A stretch of 64,000 nucleotides of DNA from Bacteroidota bacterium (GTDB lineage Bacteria > Bacteroidota > Ignavibacteria > Ignavibacteriales > Ignavibacteriaceae). The notes under the pieces were generated by a model, which worked only from the letters and a program-made list of their open reading frames with translations, did no database searches and was not told where the DNA came from. This document shows, one piece after another, positions 2,401 through 64,000 of this stretch (position 1 is its first letter; each line of letters begins with the position of its first letter). The DNA is taken from assembly GCA_022708025.1 (NCBI GenBank), contig JAKIZM010000002.1:62001-126000 (forward strand). The letters are read 5' to 3'. A program made the translations under genes and the position numbers.

Positions 2401-5091
2401 TTAAGTTGAAATCTTCAAATCTTTTAGCTCTTTTACCGGCTGGTAAACTACTCCTTCAAATTCCTCAAAATGTTTTTTACCGCATTTAATCTTATAATTT
2501 TCATGAGAATATCTTTGTTTTGGATCGAGTGAGTATTTAGTCTCTGCAACAAAATAAATTTTCTTGTCGTACTTAAAAATCAACGCCCAATCAGGATTGT
2601 AGGTACCAATCGGTGTGTTTATTACAAACCAGTTTGGAAGCTTTATATAAAACTCAACCCTTTCATTTGTTTCACACTGCTCAGCAAATTTCTTTTCCAC
2701 TTCTGAATCAAAGGGTATATAATTATAAAGTGTTTTATCTTCATTCTTAACTTTGTATAAATAATCTTTATAGCCATCCAGTTCTTTTTCTGCAAACAAT
2801 TCCATTGAGTAATATTGAGTTTCACCTATCTTTTCGTACTTAATTCCTTCAACCATCAATTCATTTAATACGTCTTTTATTTGTTTTACAGTCATATCGA
2901 GAAATAGTTGAGGATTCTTTAATACATCATTTATTCTTTCTGATTCGCAAAGTATTTTTATTATAGTTGATCTTGTCAAATCAGTTCGGCTTTGTATATA
3001 ACCTGCTATATCAGGTATTTCAGTTCTGTAATCTTCAATTTTATGAACACCGAAATTTATCTGGTATCCTTCTACTCCTTCTCGAACAAGATTAACACCC
3101 GTTTTCATTGTCCGAATCAAAGGTTGAGTTACTTCGGGCATTCCCTTTATTGCTTTTGCTGCAGCTCTAATTAACTCGTTAGTTGAATAATCAACTTTGT
3201 ATTTTGTTTTATGTTTTATTTTATCCCATAATTCAAGAAATCTTGGATCAGCTTCAAATGCTTTTCTTAATTTAACCGGGACTCTTTTTCTCTTATCTCT
3301 AATTCTACCTGTAAACTCAACTCCGCAATCTTCTTCAATTTCTTGCTGCAGCTTGTTTGCAAATTCTTCATAGCTTTCGTTTGCAATAACTGTTAAACGG
3401 TTTATATTTTTATCTAAAACACGATATCCATTTTCATTTACACAAAGCCTTAGACCTCTGCCAATTTCCTGGCGTTTTTTCATTTCAGAAGTTGTTTCAT
3501 TCAAAGTACATATCTGAAAAACATTTGTATTGTCCCAGCCTTCTCTTAATGCTGAGTGACTGAAAATAAACCGAAGAGGTTCTTCAGGATTTAATAATCT
3601 TTCTTTATCTCTCATTATTAATTGATAAGTACTATCATCATCTTTTGATTCACCTGTCTTTGAATCTTTAAAATTACCTTTGTTGTCCTGAGCGAAATAT
3701 CCATTATGGACTTTTTCTTTATCATAATTTATAACGTCAGAGAATTTTGTTTTTAGCTTCTCAAATGATTCCTCAAACCACAATGCAAATTTTCCTTTAG
3801 CTGGATTACCGTTTTCATCATAACTTCTGTAATTCGCAACCCTGTCTATAAAGAAAAGTGAAAGCACTTTTATTCTTTTTTCCTTTAGCTGTTTTTCCTT
3901 AATGAAATGTTCTTCGACGGCTTTCTGTATCTGAACTTTCATTATCTCGTCTTTGAAATCACCGGTTGTTTCACCTATATGAATTATTTTTCCATTCGAT
4001 AACTCTATGAACTTTTCTTCAAAATTTGCAGCTATTACAAGCAAATCTTTGTATTGTTCTCTGTTACCTGATAATTTGTAAAGATCATAATTCCTGGCAT
4101 CAACTTTAACAGATTTTCTCTTTACTCCGCTATCAGAGTTAACATCAATTTTTACTTTGGCTGTAATTTTTGTCTTGGCAGAAGTGATATTTTCAAGTTG
4201 AATGAATGCATCATTAAAATCATTTTCTGAATAAACAGAATCAACTTCAATTTGTTTTACAAGCCCGAGATCGTAAGCTTTAACAGGATCAAGTTTGTAG
4301 ATTAGATTATAACGATATTTATGAGTAGCTGAATATCTTAAAACAAAAAGAGGATTAAGGTTTGCAATTCCTTTTTTACGGATGTCCGTTTCCATATTTT
4401 GTGGTTCGTCGAGAATTACTATAGGTTTTGTTGCCTGAATATATTCAATCGGTCTTTTCCCTTGTGTTGAATCCCGTTCCAGATTAATAATATTTGTATC
4501 CTTTGCAAATGAATCAATATTAATTATCATTATCTGGATAGCATTACTTGTAGCAAAATTTTTAAGCTGAGGCAGACGTCTGCTGTCATAAACGAAATAA
4601 TTTACAGGCACACGGTTATATAAATTTTGCAGATGTTCTTCCGTTATTTGCAAACTCTTTAGCACTCCTTCGCGGATCGCAATGCTTGGAACAACAATAA
4701 CAAATTTTGTAAAACCATACAGCTTGTTTAACTCATAAATTGTCCGAAGGTAAACGTAGGTTTTTCCTGTTCCTGTTTCCATCTCAACTGTAAAGTTAGG
4801 GAAAGTAGTTTCAACAAATTGTTCTTCACCGTTAATTTCTCTGTAAGAAAATTTTTCTAATTTGTCTGAGTATGATAACTCATTTTCCAATTGAACTTGT
4901 TGAAGATTTTTAAGAAGATCGGTTTTTGTAATTGAGATTCTGTTACCAAAACCGAGTTCAGTAAGATCCAAAGTTCCATTTCCTGACAGTTCAAATTCAC
5001 CTTTACTAAGCGGTTGTCCTTCAAAAAGTCTTGTTACAGAACTTATTGCATCTAGCTGGTATTGCTGTTTGGAGTTAAAATGTAGTTTCAT
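2401..5091 (-). CDS. res: type III restriction enzyme, Res helicase-nuclease subunit
   Basis: An 896-residue Res subunit of a type III restriction-modification system. With Mod it translocates or diffuses on DNA and cleaves near unmethylated sites. The SF2 helicase has Walker A METGTGKT at about residues 104-111 and a DEPQ box at about 228-231. A motif VI-like region (ETTSEMKKRQEIGRGLRL) lies in mid-protein. A C-terminal PD-(D/E)xK-type nuclease is visible as PDWALIF...FVAETK. The ATG at 5091 (MKLHFNSKQQ) is preferred over an in-frame TTG at 5094 and begins four bases after the darG stop. It is the last gene of the operon. A broken second copy of its 5' end lies at 6761-6817. Confidence 0.93.
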   Translation of the reverse strand: MKLHFNSKQQYQLDAISSVTRLFEGQPLSKGEFELSGNGTLDLTELGFGNRISITKTDLLKNLQQVQLENELSYSDKLEKFSYREINGEEQFVETTFPNFTVEMETGTGKTYVYLRTIYELNKLYGFTKFVIVVPSIAIREGVLKSLQITEEHLQNLYNRVPVNYFVYDSRRLPQLKNFATSNAIQIMIINIDSFAKDTNIINLERDSTQGKRPIEYIQATKPIVILDEPQNMETDIRKKGIANLNPLFVLRYSATHKYRYNLIYKLDPVKAYDLGLVKQIEVDSVYSENDFNDAFIQLENITSAKTKITAKVKIDVNSDSGVKRKSVKVDARNYDLYKLSGNREQYKDLLVIAANFEEKFIELSNGKIIHIGETTGDFKDEIMKVQIQKAVEEHFIKEKQLKEKRIKVLSLFFIDRVANYRSYDENGNPAKGKFALWFEESFEKLKTKFSDVINYDKEKVHNGYFAQDNKGNFKDSKTGESKDDDSTYQLIMRDKERLLNPEEPLRFIFSHSALREGWDNTNVFQICTLNETTSEMKKRQEIGRGLRLCVNENGYRVLDKNINRLTVIANESYEEFANKLQQEIEEDCGVEFTGRIRDKRKRVPVKLRKAFEADPRFLELWDKIKHKTKYKVDYSTNELIRAAAKAIKGMPEVTQPLIRTMKTGVNLVREGVEGYQINFGVHKIEDYRTEIPDIAGYIQSRTDLTRSTIIKILCESERINDVLKNPQLFLDMTVKQIKDVLNELMVEGIKYEKIGETQYYSMELFAEKELDGYKDYLYKVKNEDKTLYNYIPFDSEVEKKFAEQCETNERVEFYIKLPNWFVINTPIGTYNPDWALIFKYDKKIYFVAETKYSLDPKQRYSHENYKIKCGKKHFEEFEGVVYQPVKELKDLKIST

Positions 5092-6817: not shown

Positions 6818-7974
6818 ATTGTAGGTCTTTTAAGCACAAGACGAAACTGATTATTATCAATCTCATTCAAAAAATCAATGTTGGAATATTTAGAGATAGC
6901 ACGAATTACTCCCGTTCCCATACCACGATAAGGTAATAAATTATTCTTAGTTATAAATGAAGTTAAGATTGGATTACGAATATTTGAAATACCGCTTTTA
7001 ATATTCTCTACAGTTAAATTATTAGGTAAAATACCTGGGCTATTTATTTCAACTCTATTGTCAAATATAAACAGGCGGATTGGTGCACTGATAAAGTAAT
7101 CTCTATGCATTAATGCATTAGCAACCAACTCTTCAAAAACTTCCTCTGGTATCTCTAAAACACCTTGGATATTAAACGATTCTGACTTTTGAACTTTTCT
7201 TAAGTTTCGCTTAATAAATGACATTGCTAATGCGAATTGATTTTGGACTCTGCCAGAAATATCCTCACTATCACGATATTTTGTTCCAGCAATATCATTC
7301 CCATAGTAAGAAACAGCTTTGATAATAAATTGAGGTTTAAATTTTTGAGGATTTTTTGCAAACACAAGTAAGCCTGCTAAGTTCAATTCTTGATCTTTAG
7401 CAATACCTATATTTTCTAAAAACTGAATTAAAGGTATTTCTAACTTTTCAATTTCTTGTGAATATACTGCCTTACAAAATTCTTTGAATAAATTTAGATC
7501 GAGTTCATCTATTGTTGCTGAACGCACTGGGACTTCATCAGCGTGGAAAATATCAGAACTTTGAAATAATCTTCTTAATTCTTCTTTTGATGTAACCTTT
7601 CTTTTATCAGAACCACTTTTTACCCAGACAGCGCCATCATTATCTAAATATGGCTTGTCTAATCCTTCCTCAATTTTAACAACGATTATCTTATTGTTAC
7701 CAATTTGTAAATTCTCGGTTATCGGATTTATTGGATTTTTTATATTGTTCGTTGCTGTATTAGAAATAAGTAAATTGATTCTTCTAATATCATCATCTGA
7801 CAAGCCGATAATATTATTGTTTTTGTCAACACCAATTAGGATAAAACCGCCATTAGTGTTTGCGAATGCAACCATCTCGCTTGCTAAAGATGTTGCATTT
7901 GTAACATCAACTTTAAATTGATGCTTGCTATCTTCACCTCTGGAAATAATTTCTAAAATTTCAAATTCATTCAT
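6814..7974 (-). CDS. AlbA_2 (Schlafen-type) and GHKL ATPase-like protein
   Basis: A 386-residue protein with an N-terminal AlbA_2/Schlafen-like domain (about 1-120; SKHQFKVDV, ASEMVAFANTNGG, YLDNDGAVWVKSG). The C-terminal region is of the HATPase_c_4 kind (EELVANALMHRDY, FIFDNRVEINSPG, RGMGTGVIRAI). Such proteins are often annotated as RecG-like or as putative DNA-binding regulators and are common beside restriction systems; their exact role is unsettled. The ATG at 7974 is chosen over one at 7995 because GGAGAG lies just upstream and the upstream gene stops at 7976. A remnant of res overlaps its stop codon. Confidence 0.82.
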   Translation of the reverse strand: MNEFEILEIISRGEDSKHQFKVDVTNATSLASEMVAFANTNGGFILIGVDKNNNIIGLSDDDIRRINLLISNTATNNIKNPINPITENLQIGNNKIIVVKIEEGLDKPYLDNDGAVWVKSGSDKRKVTSKEELRRLFQSSDIFHADEVPVRSATIDELDLNLFKEFCKAVYSQEIEKLEIPLIQFLENIGIAKDQELNLAGLLVFAKNPQKFKPQFIIKAVSYYGNDIAGTKYRDSEDISGRVQNQFALAMSFIKRNLRKVQKSESFNIQGVLEIPEEVFEELVANALMHRDYFISAPIRLFIFDNRVEINSPGILPNNLTVENIKSGISNIRNPILTSFITKNNLLPYRGMGTGVIRAISKYSNIDFLNEIDNNQFRLVLKRPTI

Positions 7975-7975
7975 T

Positions 7976-10615
7976 TTAATCTCTCCAAATTTCATAAATC
8001 ATATTTCTTTTATTAAAAGCTTCTTCGCCACCTTCCATAATATTTACTATCTCTTTTTGAATTAGTTTGCAATCGATACTACCCGAAGATGTTTCTAATT
8101 TATCGTTTGAATATTTACAACTAATTGTTTGTTCGCAATCACCTAATACTGGAATATTAGGATTATGTGTTGCAAAAATAAATTGTGTTTTCCCTTTTAA
8201 CCGGTTTATTTCTCTAATTACATCACTATAAATAGTTTGATTATCCAAATCATCTTCTGGTTGATCAATAATGACAACATCATTATCCTCCTTAGTTAGA
8301 ATAAATAGTATTAGAGCCGAGGCTCTTTGTCCCAATGATAGTCTATTTAGTTCGATTCCTTTATACAATAAAGTATATCTATCGGGTGTACGGAAAGTCA
8401 ATAAAGTTTCTTGTAATTCGATAAATCTGTTTCTAAAATTAGTTAGCTGCTCACCACCTCCTAGAAAATTTGATAGATCACTGTTGTTATTAAAAAGATC
8501 TTTGAATATTTGTAGTGTATCTGAATATGTATCTATGATCTTTTTAATATTCGTTTTCTGAATTCTGGTACCCTTTAAATTATCTTCTAAAAACCTGAAA
8601 TAACTTTCTTTATCCTGCTTATATTCAATACTTATTTTAACCGCAAGCCCTTTATTATTTAATTCATTCGTAGCTTCAACAAGATTAATAAACTCCACAT
8701 GATAAAGCTTTTCTAAATTATTTAAAGACTCTACAAGTTTTTTCTCAAGTAGAGTAAATTTATCTGCACGTTTACTTAATTCATCTAATTTAACATTTAA
8801 CACATTTAAACGAGAATGCAATTTCACAAAATCATCAGGATTGATTTGAGCAATATTTATAGATCTTTTAATCAGAGCAAATTCATCCTTCAGTCTGGAG
8901 TAAATATCCTGAAATTCACTCTTATAATTATCTAACTGCTTTATATTTAATTTAATCTTTGTAAGTACATTAAGGATGTTTATAATTGACTGACTTACAT
9001 CTGCTCCTACTATATTTATCTTATCAAATATCTGCTTGTTTTCCTCACTATTATATTTCAATAACTTAACAAAGTTATCATTATAATCTTTCAATTGTGA
9101 ATCAAGATCAGAAGTCATGGTTTTCAAAAAAGATGAAATTTGGTTTATTATACTTTCATCTTTTTCAAAGTTCAATTGTTTTTTAAGTTTATCTTGGATA
9201 TTGTATTCAGAGTATTTTTTTAATCGTTCTTCAACACCAGTTTTTTCTTCTATAATTTCATTCTTCTTGTCTAAGTCTTTTCTTAAGTCTTTAATTTCTC
9301 GTACTATTTTTATTATTTCTTGTTTCTGAATATTTATCTTTTCGCGTACATCTGTGACTTTGTGGCCAAAGAATTTATTAATTAAATCTGCTCCAAACCC
9401 TTCTTCTCCAATTTCACTCAAATCTTTTTGACCAAAGTAAAGAATGTTCAAGAGATTTTCATTTATTTTTAAATATGGAATTAATGTATCGTCACGATAA
9501 ACATTCGGCTTCTCATTATAGACACGCTGTACTTTATAGAATTTATCGTGTTTATCTCTTATAACTATTTCAAGCATACCACCACTGCGCATAAGATTGT
9601 AAACTATGTCGCTTTTGTAATCTGTATCTTTAGCTTTCGCACCAAAAGATATATCTAAACCGTAACGTATGGTCTCAAGTATTGTTGATTTACCACTCCC
9701 GCGAATACCAATTAGATTGTTCATATTATTGTTAAAATAGAGCACCTCATTATTGAGTAATCCTCCGGTAAATGAGATTGATTGTATATAACCATTTTTA
9801 ATTGGTAAAATACTTTCATTGATACGTTTTGATGTAGGTAAGAGCGCATATTTAACCGCATCAAAATTGAAATCACCCAGTTTAATATAAGTTACTTTTT
9901 CCAAGTTACCTTGAATATGTTTTTTACCAACTTCATCTAAACTCTTACAATCTGAACCCTCTACAAATGAAGGAAGTTTGTTGTTAAGCCAAGTGTTAAG
10001 TTTCTTTATATAATCTCCTGTTCGAACCTTCTGAAAACCCAAAACAAAATTTCTGAATAATTCATTACTCTCAAGTTCCATCATTCTGCTACCACCCAAT
10101 TCCTTAACAAAACCTTTAGGGTCCTCAATATGTGCCATTATTACAAATGAATCTCTACCATCGTTCTTATGTTCATCTAACTTTTTAAGAAGTTCAATTA
10201 AACTGTACTTACACATTGAATTCTCGTTTTCAAAATTAGAAATCCCTTCAAAAGCTGAAATTAAAAAAGCATTTATATAATTTGTTCCATCTTTATACCA
10301 TTTTTCATAATTAAATACTATCAAACAATGTAGCCCATTTTGTCCTTCTTTAACGGATAATTCAACACCAGGTAATAAAAATATTTCTTCTTTCTTTCCT
10401 TTAGAATATAAGTCTTTAAACTCATCAAGATTAAATTTATTGTGATTTGTAATTACCCCCACACCTATTTTATTATCTTTTAAACGTTGAATATACTTTT
10501 GAGTAAACTCGTTAGGATTACCATCATATTTAAATTCATTGTCTGACTTAGTATGCAAATGAAAATCTGCACGTAACCATGTGCTTCCATTTTTGAATAC
10601 TTCGTAATTATTCAT
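7976..10615 (-). CDS. PHP-domain plus SMC-like ATPase (TrlF type)
   Basis: An 879-residue protein joining an N-terminal PHP phosphoesterase to an SMC/RecN-like ATPase. The PHP part shows DFHLHT (about 17-22), ITNHNKF (55-61) and GVELS (83-87), plausible metal ligands. Walker A is GIRGSGKST (303-311). A long coiled-coil region follows (about 410-700, rich in E/K/L/I). The signature-like LSLGQRASA, Walker B VVIIDQPEDDLDN and FATHNPNI close the ATPase. This architecture matches proteins named TrlF. It lies 11 bases after mod and one base before the next start. It is a plausible nuclease or sensor in the defence operon; its substrate is unknown. Confidence 0.85.
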   Translation of the reverse strand: MNNYEVFKNGSTWLRADFHLHTKSDNEFKYDGNPNEFTQKYIQRLKDNKIGVGVITNHNKFNLDEFKDLYSKGKKEEIFLLPGVELSVKEGQNGLHCLIVFNYEKWYKDGTNYINAFLISAFEGISNFENENSMCKYSLIELLKKLDEHKNDGRDSFVIMAHIEDPKGFVKELGGSRMMELESNELFRNFVLGFQKVRTGDYIKKLNTWLNNKLPSFVEGSDCKSLDEVGKKHIQGNLEKVTYIKLGDFNFDAVKYALLPTSKRINESILPIKNGYIQSISFTGGLLNNEVLYFNNNMNNLIGIRGSGKSTILETIRYGLDISFGAKAKDTDYKSDIVYNLMRSGGMLEIVIRDKHDKFYKVQRVYNEKPNVYRDDTLIPYLKINENLLNILYFGQKDLSEIGEEGFGADLINKFFGHKVTDVREKINIQKQEIIKIVREIKDLRKDLDKKNEIIEEKTGVEERLKKYSEYNIQDKLKKQLNFEKDESIINQISSFLKTMTSDLDSQLKDYNDNFVKLLKYNSEENKQIFDKINIVGADVSQSIINILNVLTKIKLNIKQLDNYKSEFQDIYSRLKDEFALIKRSINIAQINPDDFVKLHSRLNVLNVKLDELSKRADKFTLLEKKLVESLNNLEKLYHVEFINLVEATNELNNKGLAVKISIEYKQDKESYFRFLEDNLKGTRIQKTNIKKIIDTYSDTLQIFKDLFNNNSDLSNFLGGGEQLTNFRNRFIELQETLLTFRTPDRYTLLYKGIELNRLSLGQRASALILFILTKEDNDVVIIDQPEDDLDNQTIYSDVIREINRLKGKTQFIFATHNPNIPVLGDCEQTISCKYSNDKLETSSGSIDCKLIQKEIVNIMEGGEEAFNKRNMIYEIWRD

Positions 10616-10626
10616 ATTTAACTCAT

Positions 10627-12648
10627 TTAAATTGTTATTAATTCCACTCCTGCATCCTTCATCTGCAGGGCGGTGTTTGTTTTTAACTGATCATTTCCTG
10701 CAAATAAATTATCCAGAATAATGCAGGTCTGCGGATTTACTTTTAATATTGCATCAATTATTGTCTGATCAATTCTACTAAGTACAACAGCAAGCTTATC
10801 TGCAACTAAATAAAAACCTTCTTTTTGTTCTCCCATAGGGACAAGAATCTTATCCGATAGTGTGTAGCCTGATTTTAATATTAACTCATACAACATATTT
10901 ATTTCCTGTGCTTCAGGTTTTAGCTGGGTGTCAAAGAGGTTAACCATTTTATTCAGGTCATCTTCAGATTCGATAATATCGCTGCGCCAGTGTTTGAAAT
11001 TTGATGAAGATAATTTAAATACTTTGAAACCCTGTGTGTAACCAGCCTGTCCATTTTCTAAAGATTTTTTCAACTTCTCATCAATCTCATTATCATCATT
11101 TAACTCAAGTTCAGTTTGATGATTTTCTTCCGTGCCACCCTCTCCTTTGGAGAGGGACGGGGTGAGGCTTTTTATTACTCTGCGGATTCTTTCTTTACAA
11201 ATATCCGCTATTGTTTTATATCCAGCTTTAAAAGCTTCACTATCTTCTGCTGTTTTTTCCGGAAGCTGAACAAGAATGAATTTTCTGTTTCCTCCATCTT
11301 CTTTATTTAACTCTAATACTGCCTGTGCTGTTGTACCTGAACCGGCGAAGAAGTCAAAAACTAAGTCTTCTTTTTCACAAACTACATCTATCAAAAACTT
11401 TATCAATTGATATGGTTTAGGAAAGTCCATTATTTTTTTGCCTAATAATTTGATTATTTCATCGGTACCAGTTTTTGTGTTTCCAACTTCTTCCGGCAAG
11501 ACAGTTTTCGGATGAATTGTTCCTCTTTCTTTTTCATACCATAGAATTCCCTGTGAATTAAAATAAAATTTCAAAACCTTTTGTCCTTTTGAATCGTAAG
11601 TCTCTTCACCATTTAACCATGATATAATCTGGTTTCTCATTGCCCACCCAGCACCAATTGTTACTGGTTCTTTTAGCTTTCCATTTTCAAAAATCATCTT
11701 ACCAGACTTTATAAATTCCTTTTCTGATCCACCTAATTCTATTTCAAACTCAGCATTTTCTCCTTCAAACTCCATCCCAGCAGGAAATGTTATGTCACTT
11801 TCAGGATTATCTTTGGAAATTTTTTTTAACGCACCGTGTCTTATGCTTCCACCGTTACTATCACTAAAATATTTTAAGCCATCTTTTGATTTAGCAAATG
11901 AAAGTATGTATTCGTGGGATCCGGTGAAATGACCCGCTTGAGAACCACTCCTTAAATTCCAAACAAGTTGTGCCAAGAAATTCTCCTCCCCAAAAATTTC
12001 ATTCATAATCATTCTTAAGTTATGCACTTCATTATCATCAATTGAAACAAAGATAACACCGTCATCTCTCAATAAATTTCTTGCAATATAAAGACGAGGA
12101 TACATCATCGAGAGCCAGTTGCTGTGATAGTGTCCGCTTTCTTTGCTGTTCTTTCTGAAAAATCCTTCTTTCAACAAATAACCATCTTCACTTTTCTCTC
12201 CAATGCGCTTAAGGTATTCTTCTTTGCTTTCAGAAAATTTATCCGGATAAATAAAGCTGTCGTTTCCTGTGTTATAAGGAGGGTCAATGTATATCATCTT
12301 TATTTTACCAAAGTAGGATTTCTGCAGGACTTTAAGGACTTCGAGATTTTCGCCTTCGATAAAAATATTAGCCCCCTCTTTATCTCCCCCAAAGGGGGAG
12401 AAATTCTCAGGATAAGATTCTTCAGGAACAGGTTTTAATGTTGCAGAGGTTCTTTGCTGCAACACTCTGAACACATCAGATTTACCAGCCCAGTTCAGGT
12501 TGTAACGTTCATTCTCAAAATTGATATCTTCACCAAGAGAAGCTTTAAGCTTTTCCCAGTCAATTTTTTCATCAGTAAAAGCTTCAGGAATAATTCCTTT
12601 AAGCTTATTCAGTTTATCAGAAAGAATGTCGAGTGATTTGCCATCCAT
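10627..12648 (-). CDS. mod: type III DNA methyltransferase, Mod subunit
   Basis: A 673-residue Mod of the beta class: the catalytic DPPY motif (122-125, in MIYIDPPYNTGND) precedes the SAM-binding FAGSGTT motif (about 430-440). Mod recognises the target site, methylates adenine and also directs Res. It is the first gene of the operon; the start is the ATG at 12648. Two unrelated GC-rich palindromes lie inside the frame. One encodes the segment around residues 82-94 (NFSPFGGDKEGAN). The other encodes about 504-516 (LTPSLSKGEGGTE), between the catalytic core and the C-terminal part. The frame stays open through both. Confidence 0.94.
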   Translation of the reverse strand: MDGKSLDILSDKLNKLKGIIPEAFTDEKIDWEKLKASLGEDINFENERYNLNWAGKSDVFRVLQQRTSATLKPVPEESYPENFSPFGGDKEGANIFIEGENLEVLKVLQKSYFGKIKMIYIDPPYNTGNDSFIYPDKFSESKEEYLKRIGEKSEDGYLLKEGFFRKNSKESGHYHSNWLSMMYPRLYIARNLLRDDGVIFVSIDDNEVHNLRMIMNEIFGEENFLAQLVWNLRSGSQAGHFTGSHEYILSFAKSKDGLKYFSDSNGGSIRHGALKKISKDNPESDITFPAGMEFEGENAEFEIELGGSEKEFIKSGKMIFENGKLKEPVTIGAGWAMRNQIISWLNGEETYDSKGQKVLKFYFNSQGILWYEKERGTIHPKTVLPEEVGNTKTGTDEIIKLLGKKIMDFPKPYQLIKFLIDVVCEKEDLVFDFFAGSGTTAQAVLELNKEDGGNRKFILVQLPEKTAEDSEAFKAGYKTIADICKERIRRVIKSLTPSLSKGEGGTEENHQTELELNDDNEIDEKLKKSLENGQAGYTQGFKVFKLSSSNFKHWRSDIIESEDDLNKMVNLFDTQLKPEAQEINMLYELILKSGYTLSDKILVPMGEQKEGFYLVADKLAVVLSRIDQTIIDAILKVNPQTCIILDNLFAGNDQLKTNTALQMKDAGVELITI
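11135..11169. repeat. GC-rich palindromic mini-element inside mod (3' part)
   Basis: The core is an 8-bp perfect stem (CCCTCTCC/GGAGAGGG, 11138-11156) with a 3-base TTT loop, followed by a GC-rich tail (ACGGGGTGAGGC). It is sharply richer in GC than the flanks and encodes the low-complexity LTPSLSKGEGG stretch. It looks like an in-frame insertion of a dispersed palindrome. Confidence 0.7.
12371..12403. repeat. GC-rich palindromic mini-element inside mod (5' part)
   Basis: TCTCCCCC-AAA-GGGGGAGA forms an 8-bp perfect stem at 12383-12401, preceded by GCCCCCTCTTTA. It encodes the SPFGGDKEGA stretch just upstream of the DPPY motif. It has a different sequence from the second palindrome in the gene but the same layout: an 8-bp stem with a three-base homopolymer loop. 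Confidence 0.65.
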
Positions 12649-53000: not shown

Positions 53001-53189
53001 TTGATTACAAGTGTTGAGGCGCTGACAAATTTTGCAGGAAAAAATGTGCATGTAATATTTACCTCTGTAGAAATAAATCACTTCATATAAATATCCAACT
53101 AAACAAATTCAGAGCATTTTCTGATAATCCGGATGGCACTAAGCTTGTGATTTTTAACCAGTAAAATTTTGTCGAAAGGAAGGATTATA

Positions 53190-56694: not shown

Positions 56695-56749
56695 TAATGA
56701 AGATTAACTAATAATAGATGAATTATCTAAAAACCTTGTTGAGGATGTG

Positions 56750-57124
56750 ATGAGTTTAAATTTTAAAAACCTTCAGAAATTTATCGTAGTTGGTGACAGA
56801 GTCTTAATAAGACCGCAAGAAGATTCGAATAAAACCAGCAGTGGATTATATCTTCCTGCAGGCGTAGCTGAGAAGGAAAGAATTCAAAGCGGCTATGTAA
56901 TAAAAGTCGGTCCCGGTTATGCTACATCTGCACAAAATGAAGATGAACCGTGGAAACAAAGTGAAGAACAGGTTAAATATATTCCGCTTCAGGCGAAAGA
57001 AGGGGATCTTGCAATATTTTTAAGGAAGGAAGCTTTTGAAATTGAGTTTGAGAAGGAGAAGTTATTGATCGTACCAAATCCTGCGATTTTATTACTAATC
57101 AGAAACGATGATTTCCAGGTATAA
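56750..57124 (+). CDS. GroES-family co-chaperonin paralogue
   Basis: A 124-residue GroES-like protein: VVGDRVLIRPQEDSNKTSSG (mobile-loop side), LYLPAGVAEKERIQSGYVIKVGPG, then an extra acidic insert (SAQNEDEPWKQSEEQVKYIP) before GDLAIFLRKEAFEIEF. Classical GroES is about 95 residues, so the extra ~25 residues sit where the roof loop lies. No groEL is adjacent. ATG 56750 is preferred over GTG 56747 because GAGG lies five bases upstream. Confidence 0.83.
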   Translation: MSLNFKNLQKFIVVGDRVLIRPQEDSNKTSSGLYLPAGVAEKERIQSGYVIKVGPGYATSAQNEDEPWKQSEEQVKYIPLQAKEGDLAIFLRKEAFEIEFEKEKLLIVPNPAILLLIRNDDFQV

Positions 57125-57126
57125 TT

Positions 57127-57276
57127 TCAGAAAATCAAAACTGCAATTGCAAACAGGAATGAAGATGCAATTACTAATTTTGTAATTATGGAAAAATCAT
57201 TTGTTCTTTCTTTTGCAAACACTCTTCCGTAGTTAAAATCAACAACCTGAGAATCGTTTAATATCATTTGTTTCAT
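57127..57276 (-). CDS. small membrane protein (49 residues)
   Basis: ATG 57276 to TGA 57127. A polar N-terminal half (MKQMILNDSQVVDFNYGRVF, then AKERTND) precedes a single C-terminal hydrophobic helix (IITKLVIASSFLFAIAVLIF). Tail-anchored design. It converges on the GroES-like gene, with two bases between stops. No family recognised. Confidence 0.5.
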   Translation of the reverse strand: MKQMILNDSQVVDFNYGRVFAKERTNDFSIITKLVIASSFLFAIAVLIF

Positions 57277-57489
57277 AATTATTAAATTATTTTATTGAAA
57301 AGCGTATGAATGAAACAATTAACTAATATCATTCTACTGAATAAAGTGATGCAATAATTATGCTAAACTTCAGCTTAATGCTTTCTTTTGAATATAGACT
57401 AAAAATAAAAAGGTTGCGGTGAATCGTTTGAGGTTAAATTTTAAGCGACATTTCAGACGTTTTAAATGACCGATTTTGCTTTGGTTGAC

Positions 57490-58854
57490 CTAGTCTTCCC
57501 GTATTTTTTTTAATCTTCTTTGAAGAGTCCTCTCGCTTACTCCAAGTATGGAAGCTGCTTTACGGACGTTATTATTTAATATGCCCATTACATTTATGAT
57601 ATGTTTTTTTTCTGCCTCTTCAAATGAAATTAAAATTTCAGATTTCTTTAATTCATTTTCAACAATTTCTGTAACCCTGGGAATTTCAACTACAGCTAAT
57701 CTCTGATTATCTTCTGATTGTACAACCGAATTGAAAATAATATTTTCAAGCTCTCTTACATTTCCCGGGAAGGGATAATTTCTCAGTTGAGCTATTGCTT
57801 CTCTGGTTAAGCCTAAAATATTTTTATTATAAGTTTTGTTGGCAATTTTTATAAGATTATTTGAAAGCAGAATAACATCGTTACCTCTTTTTCGTAAAGG
57901 CGGTAAACTAATGTGTCCTCTGTTAAGTCGATAATAAAGGTCAGCCCTGAAGTTTCCTTTATTAACTGCATCAACCAGATCTCTGTTAGTTGCAGCAATA
58001 ATTCTTATATCCAGTTTAACCGGATTAGAGCTTCCGATTTTAAAAATTTCATTGTATTGGATAGCTCTTAAAAGTTTACCTTGCAGCTCTTTTGGTAATT
58101 CGCCAATTTCATCTAAAAAAATTGTACCCCCATTTGCTGCTTCAAAATAACCAATTTTATCATTTGTTGAACCTGTGAAAGATCCCTTCAGGTTACCGAA
58201 TAATTCACTCTCGAATAGTGATTGCGAGATGGAAGCAAGATTGACTGCTATATAAGGTTTGTTTTTTCTTGGAGAAAGATCGTGAATTTTTTTTGCAATT
58301 AAATCTTTGCCTGTGCCGGTTTCTCCCACGATTAAAATAGTTTCATTAGTTGGAGCAAATATTTCCACCAGATTAAAAACTTTATGCATTACATCGGAAT
58401 CAGTAATAATGTTGGAGAATTTATTTTCATCAACAGTTGTTACCGGAGTATCACCTCTTAAAACATCTCTTTCTTTTTCAAGAAGCTTATAACCAATTGC
58501 CCGTCTTATTGTTAAAAGCAGTCTGTCCGTATCCGGAGGTTTAATGATAAATTCATAAGCTCCGAATTTTATTGCTTCGAGTGCAATATCTTTATCATCA
58601 ACTGCTGTTACGATTATTACCGGGATATTGGGATATTCAGGAGTAATTTGTTCTAACAACTGCAAACCATTCATCTGCGGCATATAGATATCAAGCAGAA
58701 TCAAATCAATTTTCTGAGTTCTTAGAATCTCTTTTACATTCAATGGATTTGATTCGGTTATTACATTCGGATAACCTTCTTGATTTAGAATGCTTTTAAG
58801 CAAATCTAAATAAGCTATTTCATCATCGACTAGTAATATTGTTTCTTTCATCAT
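57490..58854 (-). CDS. NtrC-family sigma-54 response regulator
   Basis: A 454-residue response regulator. The receiver has the acidic pair D10/D11, phospho-acceptor D55 (LLDIYMP), T83 and K105. The AAA+ domain has Walker A GETGTGKDLI, a sigma-54 loop written GSFTGS, and Walker B TIFLDEIGELP. A Fis-type HTH ends the protein (VRKAASILGVSERTLQRRLKK). No histidine kinase lies in the window. It follows three pilin-like genes by 92 bases and probably controls the dyad at 61472-61507. Confidence 0.94.
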   Translation of the reverse strand: MMKETILLVDDEIAYLDLLKSILNQEGYPNVITESNPLNVKEILRTQKIDLILLDIYMPQMNGLQLLEQITPEYPNIPVIIVTAVDDKDIALEAIKFGAYEFIIKPPDTDRLLLTIRRAIGYKLLEKERDVLRGDTPVTTVDENKFSNIITDSDVMHKVFNLVEIFAPTNETILIVGETGTGKDLIAKKIHDLSPRKNKPYIAVNLASISQSLFESELFGNLKGSFTGSTNDKIGYFEAANGGTIFLDEIGELPKELQGKLLRAIQYNEIFKIGSSNPVKLDIRIIAATNRDLVDAVNKGNFRADLYYRLNRGHISLPPLRKRGNDVILLSNNLIKIANKTYNKNILGLTREAIAQLRNYPFPGNVRELENIIFNSVVQSEDNQRLAVVEIPRVTEIVENELKKSEILISFEEAEKKHIINVMGILNNNVRKAASILGVSERTLQRRLKKIRED

Positions 58855-58946
58855 TTAATGCTTTCTCATTCCTTTAAAATTAAATAGAAGGGAATGAATT
58901 TTCCTGAATTGAAATATGATTATTTTTTTAATAACCCGGCTTTATT

Positions 58947-60206
58947 TTATTCATACCAGGATACAATCTCAAAACCACCAGTACCCGGGAAAAACGGAGG
59001 AGAAGCAATAAGAAATCGATCATCATATTTGTAACGCTTTGCAAAACCAGTTGCGATACCACCATTGCTTCCAATTGTCCCAACTGCTCCTCTGGTTTTC
59101 TGAATAATTCCGCCGATCAAATTTATATTACCTCTAACTACTTTTCCTCCAATCGGAGTTTTACTGTCATAATTTTGAACACTAAATCCACCCTTCTCAC
59201 AATATATTGAAGCTTGAATATTTATATCCTTGCTGTTGGGCTTGTTATCAGCTATCATTACATTATTTTCAGCACAAATACCGAGCAAATCTGTAGAATT
59301 TGGATATAGTTTTGGATCTTTATTATACACTATATCATCATCTAAATAAATTGTTCCCTTACTACTTCCTGTAGATAAAGTACTATTACAAGCTACGGTA
59401 TATTGCCCCTTTACAGTTCCTTGAAGTCGAACAATAGAATTCTTTACAAATATCATTCCGTTATTTGCTGCTGTCGGCAGGTACACTGTGGTATAAGGAG
59501 TTTTGTAAGAGAACTTATATTTTAGCGAATCGTTTACAAAACATAAATAGACCGTGTCTTTTCCGGTAAACTTTAACCCATCGTCATCTGCGAAAGTCTC
59601 TAATTCATCAACAGCATCTTTGGGTAATGGCAGATCAACTCCCGACTCATAGCCACCTAAAAAATAAGGCTTATGCTTATTCTTGTTTTTGTTATCATAA
59701 TATTCAATATTTTTCAGACTGCTTGCTTTACCAAAGAAAACCGGGCGATTGGCTGCTCTTAAAACATCTTGTGTGTGGAAAGGACCCCAAACTGTATCAG
59801 TTCCATTCCACCAAATTGTTCCCCCTTCGCTAACAGAAAAATAGGCAAATTTAGAAAACTTACTGGGTGAAAGTGTAACTATTACTGAACTACTTGCTCC
59901 ATGGTAAGTTCCGGTAGAAGTGATTTTAATAATTTTTTTATACCCACCGCTATTTTGTACGGAAACATTTAATTTTCCGCCGGAAAAACTTTTATTTGAA
60001 TAACCATCATCCCAGGTTGGGTCAATAAAAACCTGATTAGAGGCAAGATTAGCGCCGCTAACAGCGATATTATGTGCGATCATTTCGCTGTAATAGTTTA
60101 CCATATTACCAACTGAGTCAGTTGAAATACGTCCGAAATTTTTAATTGCAACCATAAATAAAAGTGTAAAACCGATTATGGTTATAAATGTTGCTTTACC
60201 AGCCAT
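58947..60206 (-). CDS. pilus-assembly-like protein, PilX-type (DUF4900-like)
   Basis: A 419-residue protein with an N-terminal hydrophobic helix (TFITIIGFTLLFMVAIKNF) and a large beta-rich extracytoplasmic region. The body recalls the DUF4900/PilX-like layout: a pilin-like stem, then FSVSEGGTIWWNGTDTVWGP and HTQDVLR, repeated IYLDDDIVYNKDP-type strands, and NINLIGGIIQKTRGAVGTIG. Third gene of the pilin-like set, six bases after the second. Likely a minor pilin or surface adhesin. Confidence 0.68.
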   Translation of the reverse strand: MAGKATFITIIGFTLLFMVAIKNFGRISTDSVGNMVNYYSEMIAHNIAVSGANLASNQVFIDPTWDDGYSNKSFSGGKLNVSVQNSGGYKKIIKITSTGTYHGASSSVIVTLSPSKFSKFAYFSVSEGGTIWWNGTDTVWGPFHTQDVLRAANRPVFFGKASSLKNIEYYDNKNKNKHKPYFLGGYESGVDLPLPKDAVDELETFADDDGLKFTGKDTVYLCFVNDSLKYKFSYKTPYTTVYLPTAANNGMIFVKNSIVRLQGTVKGQYTVACNSTLSTGSSKGTIYLDDDIVYNKDPKLYPNSTDLLGICAENNVMIADNKPNSKDINIQASIYCEKGGFSVQNYDSKTPIGGKVVRGNINLIGGIIQKTRGAVGTIGSNGGIATGFAKRYKYDDRFLIASPPFFPGTGGFEIVSWYE

Positions 60207-60212
60207 ATTACT

Positions 60213-60812
60213 TTACCTGTTTCTTAAATTTCTTGAGACCATTCTGATTTGACGCCAGAATGCTTTCGAATATTTCTGATCATAGGCTTCTGTATTCTCA
60301 ACTGTTAAGTTTATTTCAATTGATACTATGCCGCCATTGTGTCCAATTGGTGGATTAATAGTATCACCAAGAGCATCAAAATAAACAAGTCTAAACTGTG
60401 TTATTCCTAAGTTTGCACTTTTATGTTGTTCTCCATTTAACACTCTGTATAACAATCTGTCCCTCGGATTACCAGTAGAAGATAACTCCGATATTGGACC
60501 TAAATAGTAATGTACTGAATCAACATTTCCATCTGAATCAATATCTGAATAAAACTTAATTTCAGATGAATCAGCATATAAAATAGCTTTCATTGGATCT
60601 GGAATTAATGTCCAATCTGCACAATATCCTATTTTTCGAAAATCATATTCAATTATTTGTGCAGAAATGGCAAGATTTTGTTGTATTGTTAACTCACCAC
60701 TATTATTATAGGTTTTTTCGGTAATTGAATCGCTGAATCTAAAAGCTATTGACATTAAAACTCCGCCAATTATAACTGAGCCAAGAATATCAAGTATAGT
60801 TGTAAATCCCAT
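60213..60812 (-). CDS. pilin-like protein, PilW-type
   Basis: A 199-residue protein beginning MGFTTILDILGSVIIGGVLM: a short leader ending in Gly, Phe at +1 and a hydrophobic stem, as in type IV prepilins, but without the usual Glu at +5. The C-terminal region is beta-rich (VHYYLGPISELSSTGNPRDR, NLGITQFRLVYFDALGDTIN). Second gene of the operon, eight bases after the first. Confidence 0.65.
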   Translation of the reverse strand: MGFTTILDILGSVIIGGVLMSIAFRFSDSITEKTYNNSGELTIQQNLAISAQIIEYDFRKIGYCADWTLIPDPMKAILYADSSEIKFYSDIDSDGNVDSVHYYLGPISELSSTGNPRDRLLYRVLNGEQHKSANLGITQFRLVYFDALGDTINPPIGHNGGIVSIEINLTVENTEAYDQKYSKAFWRQIRMVSRNLRNR

Positions 60813-60820
60813 ATTATTCC

Positions 60821-61321
60821 CTATCTGAAATGCCAGTAACTATAAATTGTGGACATCTTAATTGTGTCTTTCATTGATTCACTAGTTACTATAATTTCCA
60901 TTTTTTTATGCCAGGTTCTATAACCAACTTTTTCCTCAGGGTTGTTTGGTTCAACATAATAGACCTTACTGTAAACATCAAATGCTGCTAAAGGCAGATG
61001 TGTATAGCGATAATGAAAATCATTGTAATCATCGAAATCATCAAAAGTAGCACTTGAATCTTTTATTTCATCTGCATTACGACCAAGAGGATAATTTGTA
61101 AGCAAAGAGCATGCTGCAACTCCGTTAGCTACAGTATTTGCATCAAAAGCCTTTTTGCTCGCTTCTTCTATAAGTGACGTTGCAAGAGAAACAGCAAGTA
61201 ATCCTAATTTTGAATCCTGCATTACTGAATCATTTGCAAGAAGGAAATTATTCATTTTAAGGATTGTTAATGATAATATTAACAGTGCTCCAATACTAAA
61301 AAGTGTTTGACCAGTATTCAT
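60821..61321 (-). CDS. pilin-like protein, PilV-type
   Basis: A 166-residue protein with N-terminus MNTGQTLFSIGALLILSLTI, a prepilin-like stem with Gly before the helix but no Glu at +5. The middle has ATSLIEEASKKAFDANTV and the C-terminus a beta-strand pair. First gene of the operon, 29 bases downstream of the predicted start of the sigma-54 promoter transcript. Confidence 0.62.
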   Translation of the reverse strand: MNTGQTLFSIGALLILSLTILKMNNFLLANDSVMQDSKLGLLAVSLATSLIEEASKKAFDANTVANGVAACSLLTNYPLGRNADEIKDSSATFDDFDDYNDFHYRYTHLPLAAFDVYSKVYYVEPNNPEEKVGYRTWHKKMEIIVTSESMKDTIKMSTIYSYWHFR

Positions 61322-61359
61322 AATTTTAACTCTCTATTGTCTCATTAATATCAAACATC

Positions 61360-61376
61360 ATGCAACTTAAAATCCC
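61360..61376 (-). promoter_or_regulatory. candidate sigma-54 (-24/-12) promoter of the pilin-like operon
   Basis: On the minus strand GGGATTTTAAGTTGCAT places GG (-24) exactly 10 bases before GC (-12), with a perfect TTGCA at -12. The -24 side lacks the consensus TGGCAC. It lies 39-55 bases upstream of the first ATG, ideal for a short leader. Confidence 0.55.
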
Positions 61377-61471
61377 TAAATGATACAAGTTGGGTTTAGT
61401 AAACAGAATTATTTTTAGTGGGTTCTTTGTCGTAGGAAAAAGTTTACATTTAATCAGTAAATTTTACCTCC

Positions 61472-61507
61472 AAAATGTCGATTATGATTAAATTAAAACG
61501 ACATTTT
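61472..61507. promoter_or_regulatory. dyad, probable enhancer site for the NtrC-type regulator
   Basis: AAAATGTCG and CGACATTTT are perfect 9-bp inverted half-sites separated by 18 bases. The dyad lies about 100-130 bases upstream of the sigma-54-like promoter, the usual position for enhancer-binding sites. The downstream gene for an NtrC-type regulator makes self-contained control likely. Confidence 0.6.
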
Positions 61508-61719
61508 TAACGCCTAAATTATTACTTTATTCTTTATAAACTGTTAAGAATGTTTTGAAATGTCTTTAATGGAAAAAAATCAATAAAACACTGTAGCAGA
61601 AAAAAAATAATGCGGCAAAATTTGATTTTAAAAAAAATAGTGTTTGAGATCATATAAAAGCAGTGAGAATGCTTGAGAATATTTTTTTGTGTCCCTGAAT
61701 AAGTCATTAATATCTTTAT
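61508..61719. other. non-coding region upstream of the dyad
   Basis: AT-rich sequence between the dyad and the marR stop. No gene or clear structure was seen. Confidence 0.4.
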
Positions 61720-62433: not shown

Positions 62434-64000
62434 ATGATTTTTCTTAATCCCGCAGTTTTATTAGGATTATTAGCTGCAACAATACCTATAATCATTCACT
62501 TGTTCAATCTAAGAAAACTTAAAAAGATTGAATTCAGTACACTTGCTTTCTTGAAGGAATTGCAGAAGAATAAAATCAGGAAGATAAAACTAAAACAATG
62601 GATTTTACTCGCACTCAGAGTATTAATAATTCTGTTTGTGGTTTTAGCTTTTGCAAGACCGACTTTACAATCTATTCAGATTGGCGGAACAACTTCTGCA
62701 GCAAAAACTACTGCTATATTTATACTTGATGATACATTCAGTATGTCTGTTGTTGATCAGAAAGGATCATACTTTAATCAGGGAAAAGAAATTATTAAAC
62801 AAATAATATTACAACTTCAGGAAGGCGATGAAGTTGGTTTGATATTAGTTTCAAATCCAACCAATGAAAATAAATTAACAACAAATTTTTCCGAGTTTAT
62901 TAAAAATCTTGATATGTTGAATTTATCATACTCAACAGGTGATTTAAATTTTTCAATTATAAAAGCTGCTCAGCTAATTTCAGAGAGTAAAAATTTTAAC
63001 AAGGAAATTTATGTAATCTCAGATTTTCAAAAGAATAAAATCAATGATGAAAAAGCACAAAATGATTTAAGTGAACTATTAAACGATAAAGTTCGTCTTT
63101 ATTCTTTTGATCTCGCCGATAAAGATATTTTTAATCTTTCAATTGATGATCTGGAAATTAATAATCAGATATTCGAAATAGATAAACCAATAAGTTTTTC
63201 GATAACGATCACAAATAATTCTAAGCAAGATGTTAATAGCGGAGTCGTTTCGTTATTTATGAACAATGAACGCTCGGCTCAAAAAAGTTTTGATGTTGCT
63301 TCGGGGCAATCAGCAATTGTTGATATTGAAGCAACTCCTAAAACAACTGGCTTTATTGATGTGGTTGCTGAGATTGAGACTGATGAGATTGAACAAGACA
63401 ACAAGCGTTTTGCAAGCATCTTTATTCCAGAAAAAATATCTGTCGGATTGTTTGCAGAAAACCAAAATGATTTAATCTTTGTTGATCTTGCTTTGCAAAC
63501 AGCGGGAGAGGGAAAATATCTGATTGAAAGAAAAAATATTAATCTGTTAACTTCTCAGCAGTTAAGTAAATATCAAACAATAATTATTTCTGCAAATAAT
63601 GTATCAAACGGAATTGAGCAATTAAAAGATTTCGTTAACAACGGCGGTGGTTTGATCTTGTTTCCATCATCAAATCCTGATGCAGTGTCTTTTAACAGAA
63701 CATTGACACAGCTTGGTTTAGGAAATGCTCAAGCCTTTGTTGGAAAGGTCAACGGAAGCGATATTAAAATAAATTTTGATAAAACAGATTTTGGCCACCC
63801 TGTTTTTCAGAACATTTTTAAAAGTGATGATAAAAAGAAATATGAATCGCCCGAGCTTAATGCATATTATAAACTAACACAATCAGGTAAACAGATAATT
63901 TCACTTGTTGATGGTTCTTCATTTTTGGATGAAATTAAAATAGATAATGGCAAAGTTTTTCTTTTTAATTCATCACCGGTTTTAAGCTGGAGTGATTTTC
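62434..64000 (+). CDS. BatA-type membrane protein with vWA-like domain, 3' end cut off
   Basis: At least 522 residues, open to the right edge. The N-terminus MIFLNPAVLLGLLAATIPII then HLFNLRKLKKIEFSTLAFL is the BatA signature, with a second helix (ILLALRVLIILFVVLAFARP). A vWA-like domain follows, its metal site written FILDDTFSMS (D-x-S-x-S type with extra Asp and Phe). Later parts are beta-rich (CARDB-like, about 235-330) and a DUF4159/GATase-like ELKDFVNNGGGLILFPS stretch. Likely part of an envelope-stress or protein-maturation complex with MoxR-type partners beyond the window. Confidence 0.85.
   Translation, partial: MIFLNPAVLLGLLAATIPIIIHLFNLRKLKKIEFSTLAFLKELQKNKIRKIKLKQWILLALRVLIILFVVLAFARPTLQSIQIGGTTSAAKTTAIFILDDTFSMSVVDQKGSYFNQGKEIIKQIILQLQEGDEVGLILVSNPTNENKLTTNFSEFIKNLDMLNLSYSTGDLNFSIIKAAQLISESKNFNKEIYVISDFQKNKINDEKAQNDLSELLNDKVRLYSFDLADKDIFNLSIDDLEINNQIFEIDKPISFSITITNNSKQDVNSGVVSLFMNNERSAQKSFDVASGQSAIVDIEATPKTTGFIDVVAEIETDEIEQDNKRFASIFIPEKISVGLFAENQNDLIFVDLALQTAGEGKYLIERKNINLLTSQQLSKYQTIIISANNVSNGIEQLKDFVNNGGGLILFPSSNPDAVSFNRTLTQLGLGNAQAFVGKVNGSDIKINFDKTDFGHPVFQNIFKSDDKKKYESPELNAYYKLTQSGKQIISLVDGSSFLDEIKIDNGKVFLFNSSPVLSWSDF

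What the first reader, a model, noticed from the sequence alone, without database searches (positions are those of the whole stretch)
57490..61507. Self-contained sigma-54 circuit: dyad, -24/-12 promoter, pilin-like genes and NtrC-type regulator
A perfect AAAATGTCG-N18-CGACATTTT dyad sits about 100 bases upstream of a GG-N10-GC promoter with TTGCA, which sits just before three pilin-like genes. The likely activator is the downstream response regulator. All parts of an enhancer-type switch are in 4 kb, apparently without a partner kinase nearby. A single half-site GCGACATTT also occurs at 57445-57453, downstream of the regulator.
Basis: partly seen in the sequence, partly recalled or inferred. 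Interest (0 to 1): 0.6.

Follow-up and report, generated by a model that had tools for sequence, protein, structure and literature searches.

The report
Sigma-54 switch for pilin-like genes
A bacterial gene cluster for pilus-type surface proteins carries its own activator gene and conserved control sites nearby, though not quite the sites first proposed, and the proteins appear to lack the leader that normal pilus subunits need cut off.

Summary
The circuit is real; two of its drawn parts are wrong. The dyad (61472-61507) exists, but in the closest species its flanks and left arm persist and its right arm does not. The left arm belongs to a conserved dyad, AGGCGTTAAAAATGTCGTTT (61496-61515, minus strand). 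The 'single half-site' at 57445 is part of a second copy (57443-57462), followed by a second sigma-54-type promoter and an unannotated 49-aa membrane-protein gene (57127-57276). A matrix trained on this genus finds the dyad just after the regulator's stop codon in 14 of 28 orthologues elsewhere, against 0 of 24 paralogous regulators. A third element, GGTAAAATTTAC (61457-61468), recurs upstream of these cassettes across the order and behind a second activator gene (20 of 29 orthologues against 0 of 24 paralogues). So the operon probably has two enhancer inputs. Unexpectedly, the pilin-like proteins start 1-3 residues before the pilin-type Gly, that start is forced in nearly all homologues, and no prepilin peptidase was detected in 6 of 6 genomes of the genus.

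The parts
57490..58854 (-). Reg: 454-aa NtrC-type response regulator (receiver, sigma-54 AAA+ domain, Fis-type HTH)
   Evidence: Pfam; orthologues at 52% identity or more in 35 genomes, all in one family of the order; receiver motifs conserved, GAFTGA loop reads GSFTGS here
58947..60206 (-). p3: 419-aa pilin-like protein, DUF4900-related, starts MAG|KATF
60213..60812 (-). p2: 199-aa protein, predicted fold like GspJ/XcpW minor pseudopilins, starts MG|FTT
60821..61321 (-). p1: 166-aa protein, predicted fold like GspI/XcpV/EpsI minor pseudopilins, starts MNTG|QTL
61348..61366 (-). sigma-54-type promoter of p1, GTTGCATGATGTTTGATAT; predicted start near 61340 (inference)
   Evidence: order-wide motif; score 12.8 with a matrix trained without this genus; conserved in the relatives
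61457..61468 (-). second enhancer element GGTAAAATTTAC (UAS-b)
   Evidence: 60 of 84 p1 upstream regions score 10 or more against 3.2 expected from shuffles; also follows the EBP-b gene
61496..61515 (-). dyad (a), AGGCGTTAAAAATGTCGTTT: likely Reg site, ends 129 nt before the promoter element
   Evidence: conserved in 5 of 5 genus members with an orthologous p1
57443..57462 (-). second dyad (a), AAACGTCTGAAATGTCGCTT, after the Reg stop codon
57348..57366 (-). second sigma-54-type promoter, TTAGCATAATTATTGCATC, 76 nt after the dyad
   Evidence: score 16.1; conserved in 8 of 8 aligned genomes
57127..57276 (-). sp: 49-aa protein with C-terminal hydrophobic segment, below the ORF length used
   Evidence: 49 aa in 8 of 8 genomes of two genera; dN below dS in all 28 pairs

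Best explanation
Reg is a kinase-orphan, NtrC-type activator. Once phosphorylated by an unidentified kinase, it binds 20-bp dyads (ideal form near GGCGACAAATTTGTCGCC) and drives sigma-54 RNA polymerase at two flanking promoters: one for p1-p2-p3, probably reading through into reg itself, and one for the 49-aa protein sp. The p1 promoter has a second enhancer, GGTAAAATTTAC. It is probably bound by EBP-b, a second sigma-54 activator without a recognised receiver domain, encoded elsewhere next to a Ser/Thr-kinase/TPR protein. p1, p2 and p3 would be GspI/GspJ/GspK-like tip subunits for the genome's PilB/PilT/PilC/secretin machine. Shown by sequence comparison: conserved sites, their tie to the two regulator genes, promoter motif, sp coding. 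Inferred: binding, activation, phosphorylation, readthrough, subunit role.
For: Dyad (a) before p1 and after reg in the genus. Matrix trained on 12 genus sites: score 14 or more within 220 nt after the Reg stop in 14 of 28 orthologues outside the genus, 0 of 24 paralogues, 0.1% of shuffles. Sigma-54-type promoter mostly 57-90 nt after the dyad, then p1-p2-like genes or sp. Pattern drawn from those sites: 19 places in 80 genomes, 10 of them 14-37 nt after a reg gene. A degenerate site pattern with no mismatch occurs twice in the window's genome, both flanking reg. The promoter motif also emerges without a seed, and a matrix trained on one family finds it in 25 of 27 upstream regions of the others at score 8 against 1.1 shuffled. 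UAS-b follows EBP-b in 20 of 29 orthologues against 0 of 24 paralogues, with the promoter at +48 to +52 in 18 of those 20. Fold matches to pilin-type proteins; one pilus/secretion machine found in the genome.
Against: No binding, transcription or phosphorylation data. 14 of 28 orthologues fall below score 14, several with a weak or different site. In the related genus of G045 and G047 the dyad was seen only before sp (p1 upstream testable in G047 only, as G045's contig ends). In G001 no strong dyad precedes the two divergent cassettes at this locus. The p1 promoter in the window departs from strict GG/GC (TG and GA at those positions). Trained in the reverse direction, the promoter matrix finds only 18 of 58 at score 8, against 0.3 shuffled. 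4 of 27 Reg orthologues also have UAS-b downstream, so that element is not exclusive to EBP-b.
Confidence: 0.75

Rival explanations
1. One reading: Reg binds the AAAATGTCG-N18-CGACATTTT dyad and the promoter is the GG-N10-GC element.
For: Perfect 9-bp arms, rare in a simulation with the G/C condition (1.3%); GG-N10-GC fits the strict dinucleotide rule better than the conserved element does.
Against: Right arm not conserved in 4 of 4 relatives while the left arm is; -24 GG absent in 3 of 4 relatives; promoter score -0.3 against 12.8; the 20-bp step between the two CG pairs does not fit the 12-bp step of tandem dyads seen beside other reg genes.
Confidence: 0.05
2. In this genome Reg controls only sp; p1-p3 are driven by EBP-b alone through GGTAAAATTTAC, and the dyad before p1 is a leftover or minor site.
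For: UAS-b precedes p1 cassettes across the order, mostly in genomes without Reg; in G047 the dyad was seen only before sp.
Against: Dyad kept before p1 in 5 of 5 genus members with an orthologous p1, also where the cassette lies on another contig than reg (G005); in most other genera the dyad after reg precedes p1-p2-like genes directly.
Confidence: 0.15
3. The dyad is a transcription terminator hairpin of reg, not an operator.
For: It often starts within 40 nt after the reg stop codon and can be drawn as a short hairpin.
Against: A copy stands before p1, far from reg's 3' end, and one before reg itself in G005; no run of five or more T directly follows it in the genus alignments printed; promoter at near-constant distance; overlapping tandem dyads.
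Confidence: 0.06
4. The promoter motif is read by another sigma factor.
For: The first G of GG (44%) and the C of GC (25%) are not dominant in the order-wide matrix.
Against: Spacing and letters otherwise match -24/-12 (unseeded motif TnGCAnAAnnnTTG); clean TGGCAY-N5-TTG promoters follow the same UAS-b next to the EBP-b gene; rpoN present.
Confidence: 0.05

Closest known systems
Locally acting sigma-54 enhancer-binding proteins, as reconstructed in Clostridiales (PMC6615313, passages read)
   Same: Activator gene beside its target operon, UAS upstream of a -24/-12 promoter; there 170 of 263 activators were assigned one operon and most targets are co-localised with the activator gene
   Different: Other phylum; pilin-like target plus a 49-aa protein; UAS often directly after the activator's own stop codon; a second enhancer at the p1 promoter
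PilS-PilR and RpoN control of type IV pili (PMC6058289, passages read)
   Same: NtrC-type response regulator and sigma-54 acting on pilus genes; GTC-type half-sites (that paper names GTCT elements as a PilR hallmark)
   Different: No partner kinase on the contig; minor-pilin-like targets; 20-bp dyads
Minor pseudopilins GspI, GspJ, GspK of type II secretion and minor type IV pilins
   Same: Predicted fold of p2 (Z 12.3 to 9.9 for ten pilin-type entries, next row 5.1) and of p1 (Z 7.8 to 6.2 for the five GspI-type entries); gene order I-J-K-like
   Different: No leader longer than 1-3 residues before the Gly, no Glu5, no Pfam match for the window's p1 and p2, no detected prepilin peptidase in the genus

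Membership tests
NtrC-type response regulator (bacterial enhancer-binding protein) | Receiver, sigma-54 AAA+ and Fis-type HTH domains | tested here: met
   Pfam Response_reg, Sigma54_activat and HTH_8 above cut-off
NtrC-type response regulator (bacterial enhancer-binding protein) | GAFTGA sigma-54 contact loop | tested here: inconclusive
   GSFTGS in the window and 3 more; among 32 orthologues GSFTGA 10, GTFTGA 10, GAFTGA 5, GSFTGS 4, others 3
Two-component pair such as PilS-PilR | Partner histidine kinase encoded nearby | tested here: not met
   0 of 47 HATPase_c matches on contig C20
Sigma-54 promoter | Strict GG at -24 and GC at -12 | tested here: not met
   The conserved p1 element has TG and GA there; order-wide the second G (98%) and the G of GC (93%) hold, the other two letters vary
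Sigma-54 promoter | -24/-12 type consensus and spacing with an upstream activator site | tested here: met
   T-n-GCA-n-AA-n3-TTG found unseeded and across families; UAS elements upstream
Minor pseudopilin or pilin | Long N-terminal helix plus C-terminal beta domain | tested here: met
   Models of p1 and p2 with pilin-type best matches; p3 not modelled
Minor pseudopilin or pilin | Cleavable class III leader and prepilin peptidase | tested here: not met
   Short start is the only possible start in 56 of 58 p1, 50 of 53 p2, 35 of 37 p3; Peptidase_A24 in 0 of 6 genomes, 12 of 14 controls positive
Minor pseudopilin or pilin | Glu at position 5 of the mature protein | tested here: not met
   Ser, Leu and Ile at that place in the window's p1, p2, p3 (read)

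The most novel reading that the evidence does not exclude
Bacteria of this Ignavibacterium-like genus, and perhaps the order, build a type IV pilus or type II secretion-like filament from 'leaderless' pilins that are translated starting 1-3 residues before the mature N-terminus and need no prepilin peptidase. Swappable GspI-J-K-like tip cassettes are turned on by dedicated sigma-54 activators that carry their operators directly behind their own genes, while a kinase-linked second activator (EBP-b) sets the common programme.
Probability: 0.4. Interest if true: 0.8.

Novelty: new variant of a known kind. Interest (0 to 1): 0.52.

Why it matters
It gives exact, testable operators and promoters for two sigma-54 activators in a poorly studied phylum and a candidate 49-aa pilus-associated protein. 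[quoted passage not shown] If right, cleavage by prepilin peptidase is not essential for every pilus-type machine.

Tried and rejected
Strict GG-N10-GC scanning missed most homologous promoters; an order-wide motif replaced it. Genome-wide search for TGTCG-N18-CGACA showed no motif. Pfam gave nothing for p1 homologues, one weak DUF5044 hit among 53 p2 homologues, and DUF4900 for 24 of 37 p3 homologues; no solved-structure sequence match for p2. NCBIfam gave one hit far below cut-off for p2. Foldseek alone gave no match at E 0.001 or better for p1 or p2; the pilin assignment rests on the second alignment, and for p1 its Z values are in the range that can be a common arrangement. The terminator reading of the dyad was rejected for the reasons given. 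sp was found only beside reg in 8 genomes, in 24 overlapping loci, of all loci then held. The p3-reg gap in the window has no sigma-54-type promoter (best score -3.2), whereas G045 and G047 have a hairpin with T-run there. The pattern was drawn after seeing the sites, so its 10 of 19 shows specificity, not independent discovery. In one search, 31 loci were given and 28 were usable; L193 was scored past its true stop (its dyad, 18.6, is) and L085 is a fragment. In one search, 30 loci were given and 29 were usable. Paper searches on Ignavibacteria with sigma-54 and pili (0), minor pilin (2, listing only), DUF4900 (0) and prepilin peptidase (1; its passages, do not concern this group's pilins) gave no prior description.
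Full report
The observation. All named letters are in the sequence. The genome is an unnamed Ignavibacterium-like draft of 3.45 Mb in 117 contigs with one rpoN. Named close relatives of the regulator include Ignavibacteriota bacterium IGN3, UBA8501 and an Ignavibacterium sp. bin. Inside the intergenic region a perfect 9-bp repeat with three or more G/C per arm is unusual (1.3% of simulations; 22.8% without the G/C condition). Genome-wide, the TGTCG-N18-CGACA pattern is not enriched (19 places against 61 in the reversed control with one mismatch).

Conservation moves the parts. Orthologous regulators at 85-96% identity exist in five sister species. The left arm is thus the right half of a 20-bp dyad, AGGCGTTAAAAATGTCGTTT (61496-61515), close to a palindrome GGCGACAAATTTGTCGCC.

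Order-wide promoter and second element. The p1-p2-p3 cassette occurs in 133 of 164 genomes of the order (p3 query). From rows listed there and neighbouring reg loci I fetched 80 loci and took 86 p1 upstream regions, 84 after removing near-duplicates. A -24/-12-type motif scores 7 or more in 71 of 84 against 4.0 in shuffles, with median start 59 nt before ATG. GTAAWWWTTAC scores 10 or more in 60 of 84 against 3.2. Trained on one family and tested on the others, the promoter is found in 25 of 27 at score 8 (1.1 shuffled) and UAS-b in 21 of 27 (2.2 shuffled); the reverse direction gives 18 of 58 (0.3) and 36 of 58 (4.8). The promoter motif also emerges from unseeded starts.

The regulator's own site. 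The 57445 half-site lies in a second dyad (57443-57462), after which come a promoter TTAGCATAATTATTGCATC and a 49-aa reading frame (57127-57276) conserved at exactly 49 aa in 8 of 8 genomes, with dN below dS in all 28 pairs. Outside the genus the same dyad stands just behind reg genes, often as two dyads offset by 12 bp, then a promoter, then p1-p2-like pilin genes. Of 37 reg loci, p1/p2-like genes follow reg in 23, sp in 8 and neither in 6, some of these at contig ends (my tally). Control: 14 of 28 orthologues against 0 of 24 paralogues at score 14. Among 69 cassette upstream regions without reg in the same locus, 5 score 12 or more, and 4 of these are in genomes with a reg orthologue elsewhere. 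In the window's genome a degenerate no-mismatch site pattern has two places, both flanking reg. In 80 family genomes a stricter pattern has 19 places, 10 within 37 nt behind a reg gene.

The second activator. Exact UAS-b hits in three genus genomes include one behind a 461-aa sigma-54 activator, EBP-b, with no recognised receiver domain, next to a 1202-aa Ser/Thr kinase-AAA-TPR protein. Behind EBP-b orthologues UAS-b scores 12 or more in 20 of 29, in 0 of 24 paralogues and in 4 of 27 Reg orthologues; a TGGCAY-N5-TTG-type promoter follows at +48 to +52 in 18 of those 20 (counted by eye). Other UAS-b targets include pilin-like genes starting MGQQQLLL and the second cassette of the genome. That EBP-b binds UAS-b is an inference from this link.

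What the genes make. p2 models as a long helix plus beta domain (mean pLDDT 75) and its ten best second-look matches are pilin-type (TTHA1219, GspJ/XcpW; Z 12.3 to 9.9; next 5.1). p1 (pLDDT 85) matches GspI-type chains best (Z 7.8 to 6.2). p3 homologues carry DUF4900 (24 of 37). The genome has PilB, PilT (above the curated cut-off), PilC/GspF and secretin genes on contig C46 and no other T2SSE match. The proteins start MNTG|Q, MG|F and MAG|K, and no longer start is possible in 56 of 58, 50 of 53 and 35 of 37 homologues. No Peptidase_A24 was found in 6 of 6 genus genomes, with 12 of 14 control genomes positive; a very divergent peptidase could have been missed. The Melioribacter roseus paper reports pilT, pilQ, pilB and pilC but no pilA or pilD (PMC3534657, passages). 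Removal of Met before Gly or Ala by methionine aminopeptidase is my suggestion from general knowledge.

Mechanism. Best reading: Reg, activated by an unlinked kinase, binds the two dyads and drives p1-p3 (and probably itself by readthrough) and sp through sigma-54; EBP-b adds a second input at p1. Steps shown are conservation and gene linkage; binding, activation and subunit role are inferred. Local activator-target pairs are ordinary for sigma-54 systems (PMC6615313, passages). The combination here, with pilins that break the leader rule, is not something I found in print (searches, in the held open-access library only).

Noticed in passing
L267:5818-7203 and 7178-10786 (G000:C19): EBP-b: sigma-54 activator without a recognised receiver domain beside a 1202-aa Ser/Thr kinase-AAA-TPR gene; probable activator of an order-wide pilus programme.
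   Followed up: partly
L268:2171-2578 and 2640-3020 (G000:C21): Two tandem pilin-like genes starting MGQQQLLLIVLGV, without Pfam or NCBIfam match, with UAS-b sites nearby; candidate leaderless major pilins.
   Followed up: partly
G000-G005, all six genus genomes: No Peptidase_A24 prepilin peptidase detected although PilB, PilT, PilC and secretin genes are present in G000.
   Followed up: partly
L267:5062-5580: Gene after the EBP-b UAS encodes a secreted-looking protein made of near-identical GSQLDELGGRYVWVR repeats; an overlapping frame is also open and repetitive.
   Followed up: no
L080 upstream of 4765 (G005): Dyad (a) and a sigma-54-type promoter stand directly before reg where the cassette has moved to another contig, suggesting autoregulation.
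   Followed up: no
L091:2424-2520 and L093:6461-6559: Strong hairpin with T-run between p3 and reg in G045 and G047, absent in the window's genome.
   Followed up: partly
53052-53063: Another exact GGTAAATATTAC in the window (minus strand), with no target promoter identified.
   Followed up: no
56747-57124 and 62434-63999: Cpn10-like and BatA-type genes flank the circuit and are conserved neighbours in many relatives.
   Followed up: no
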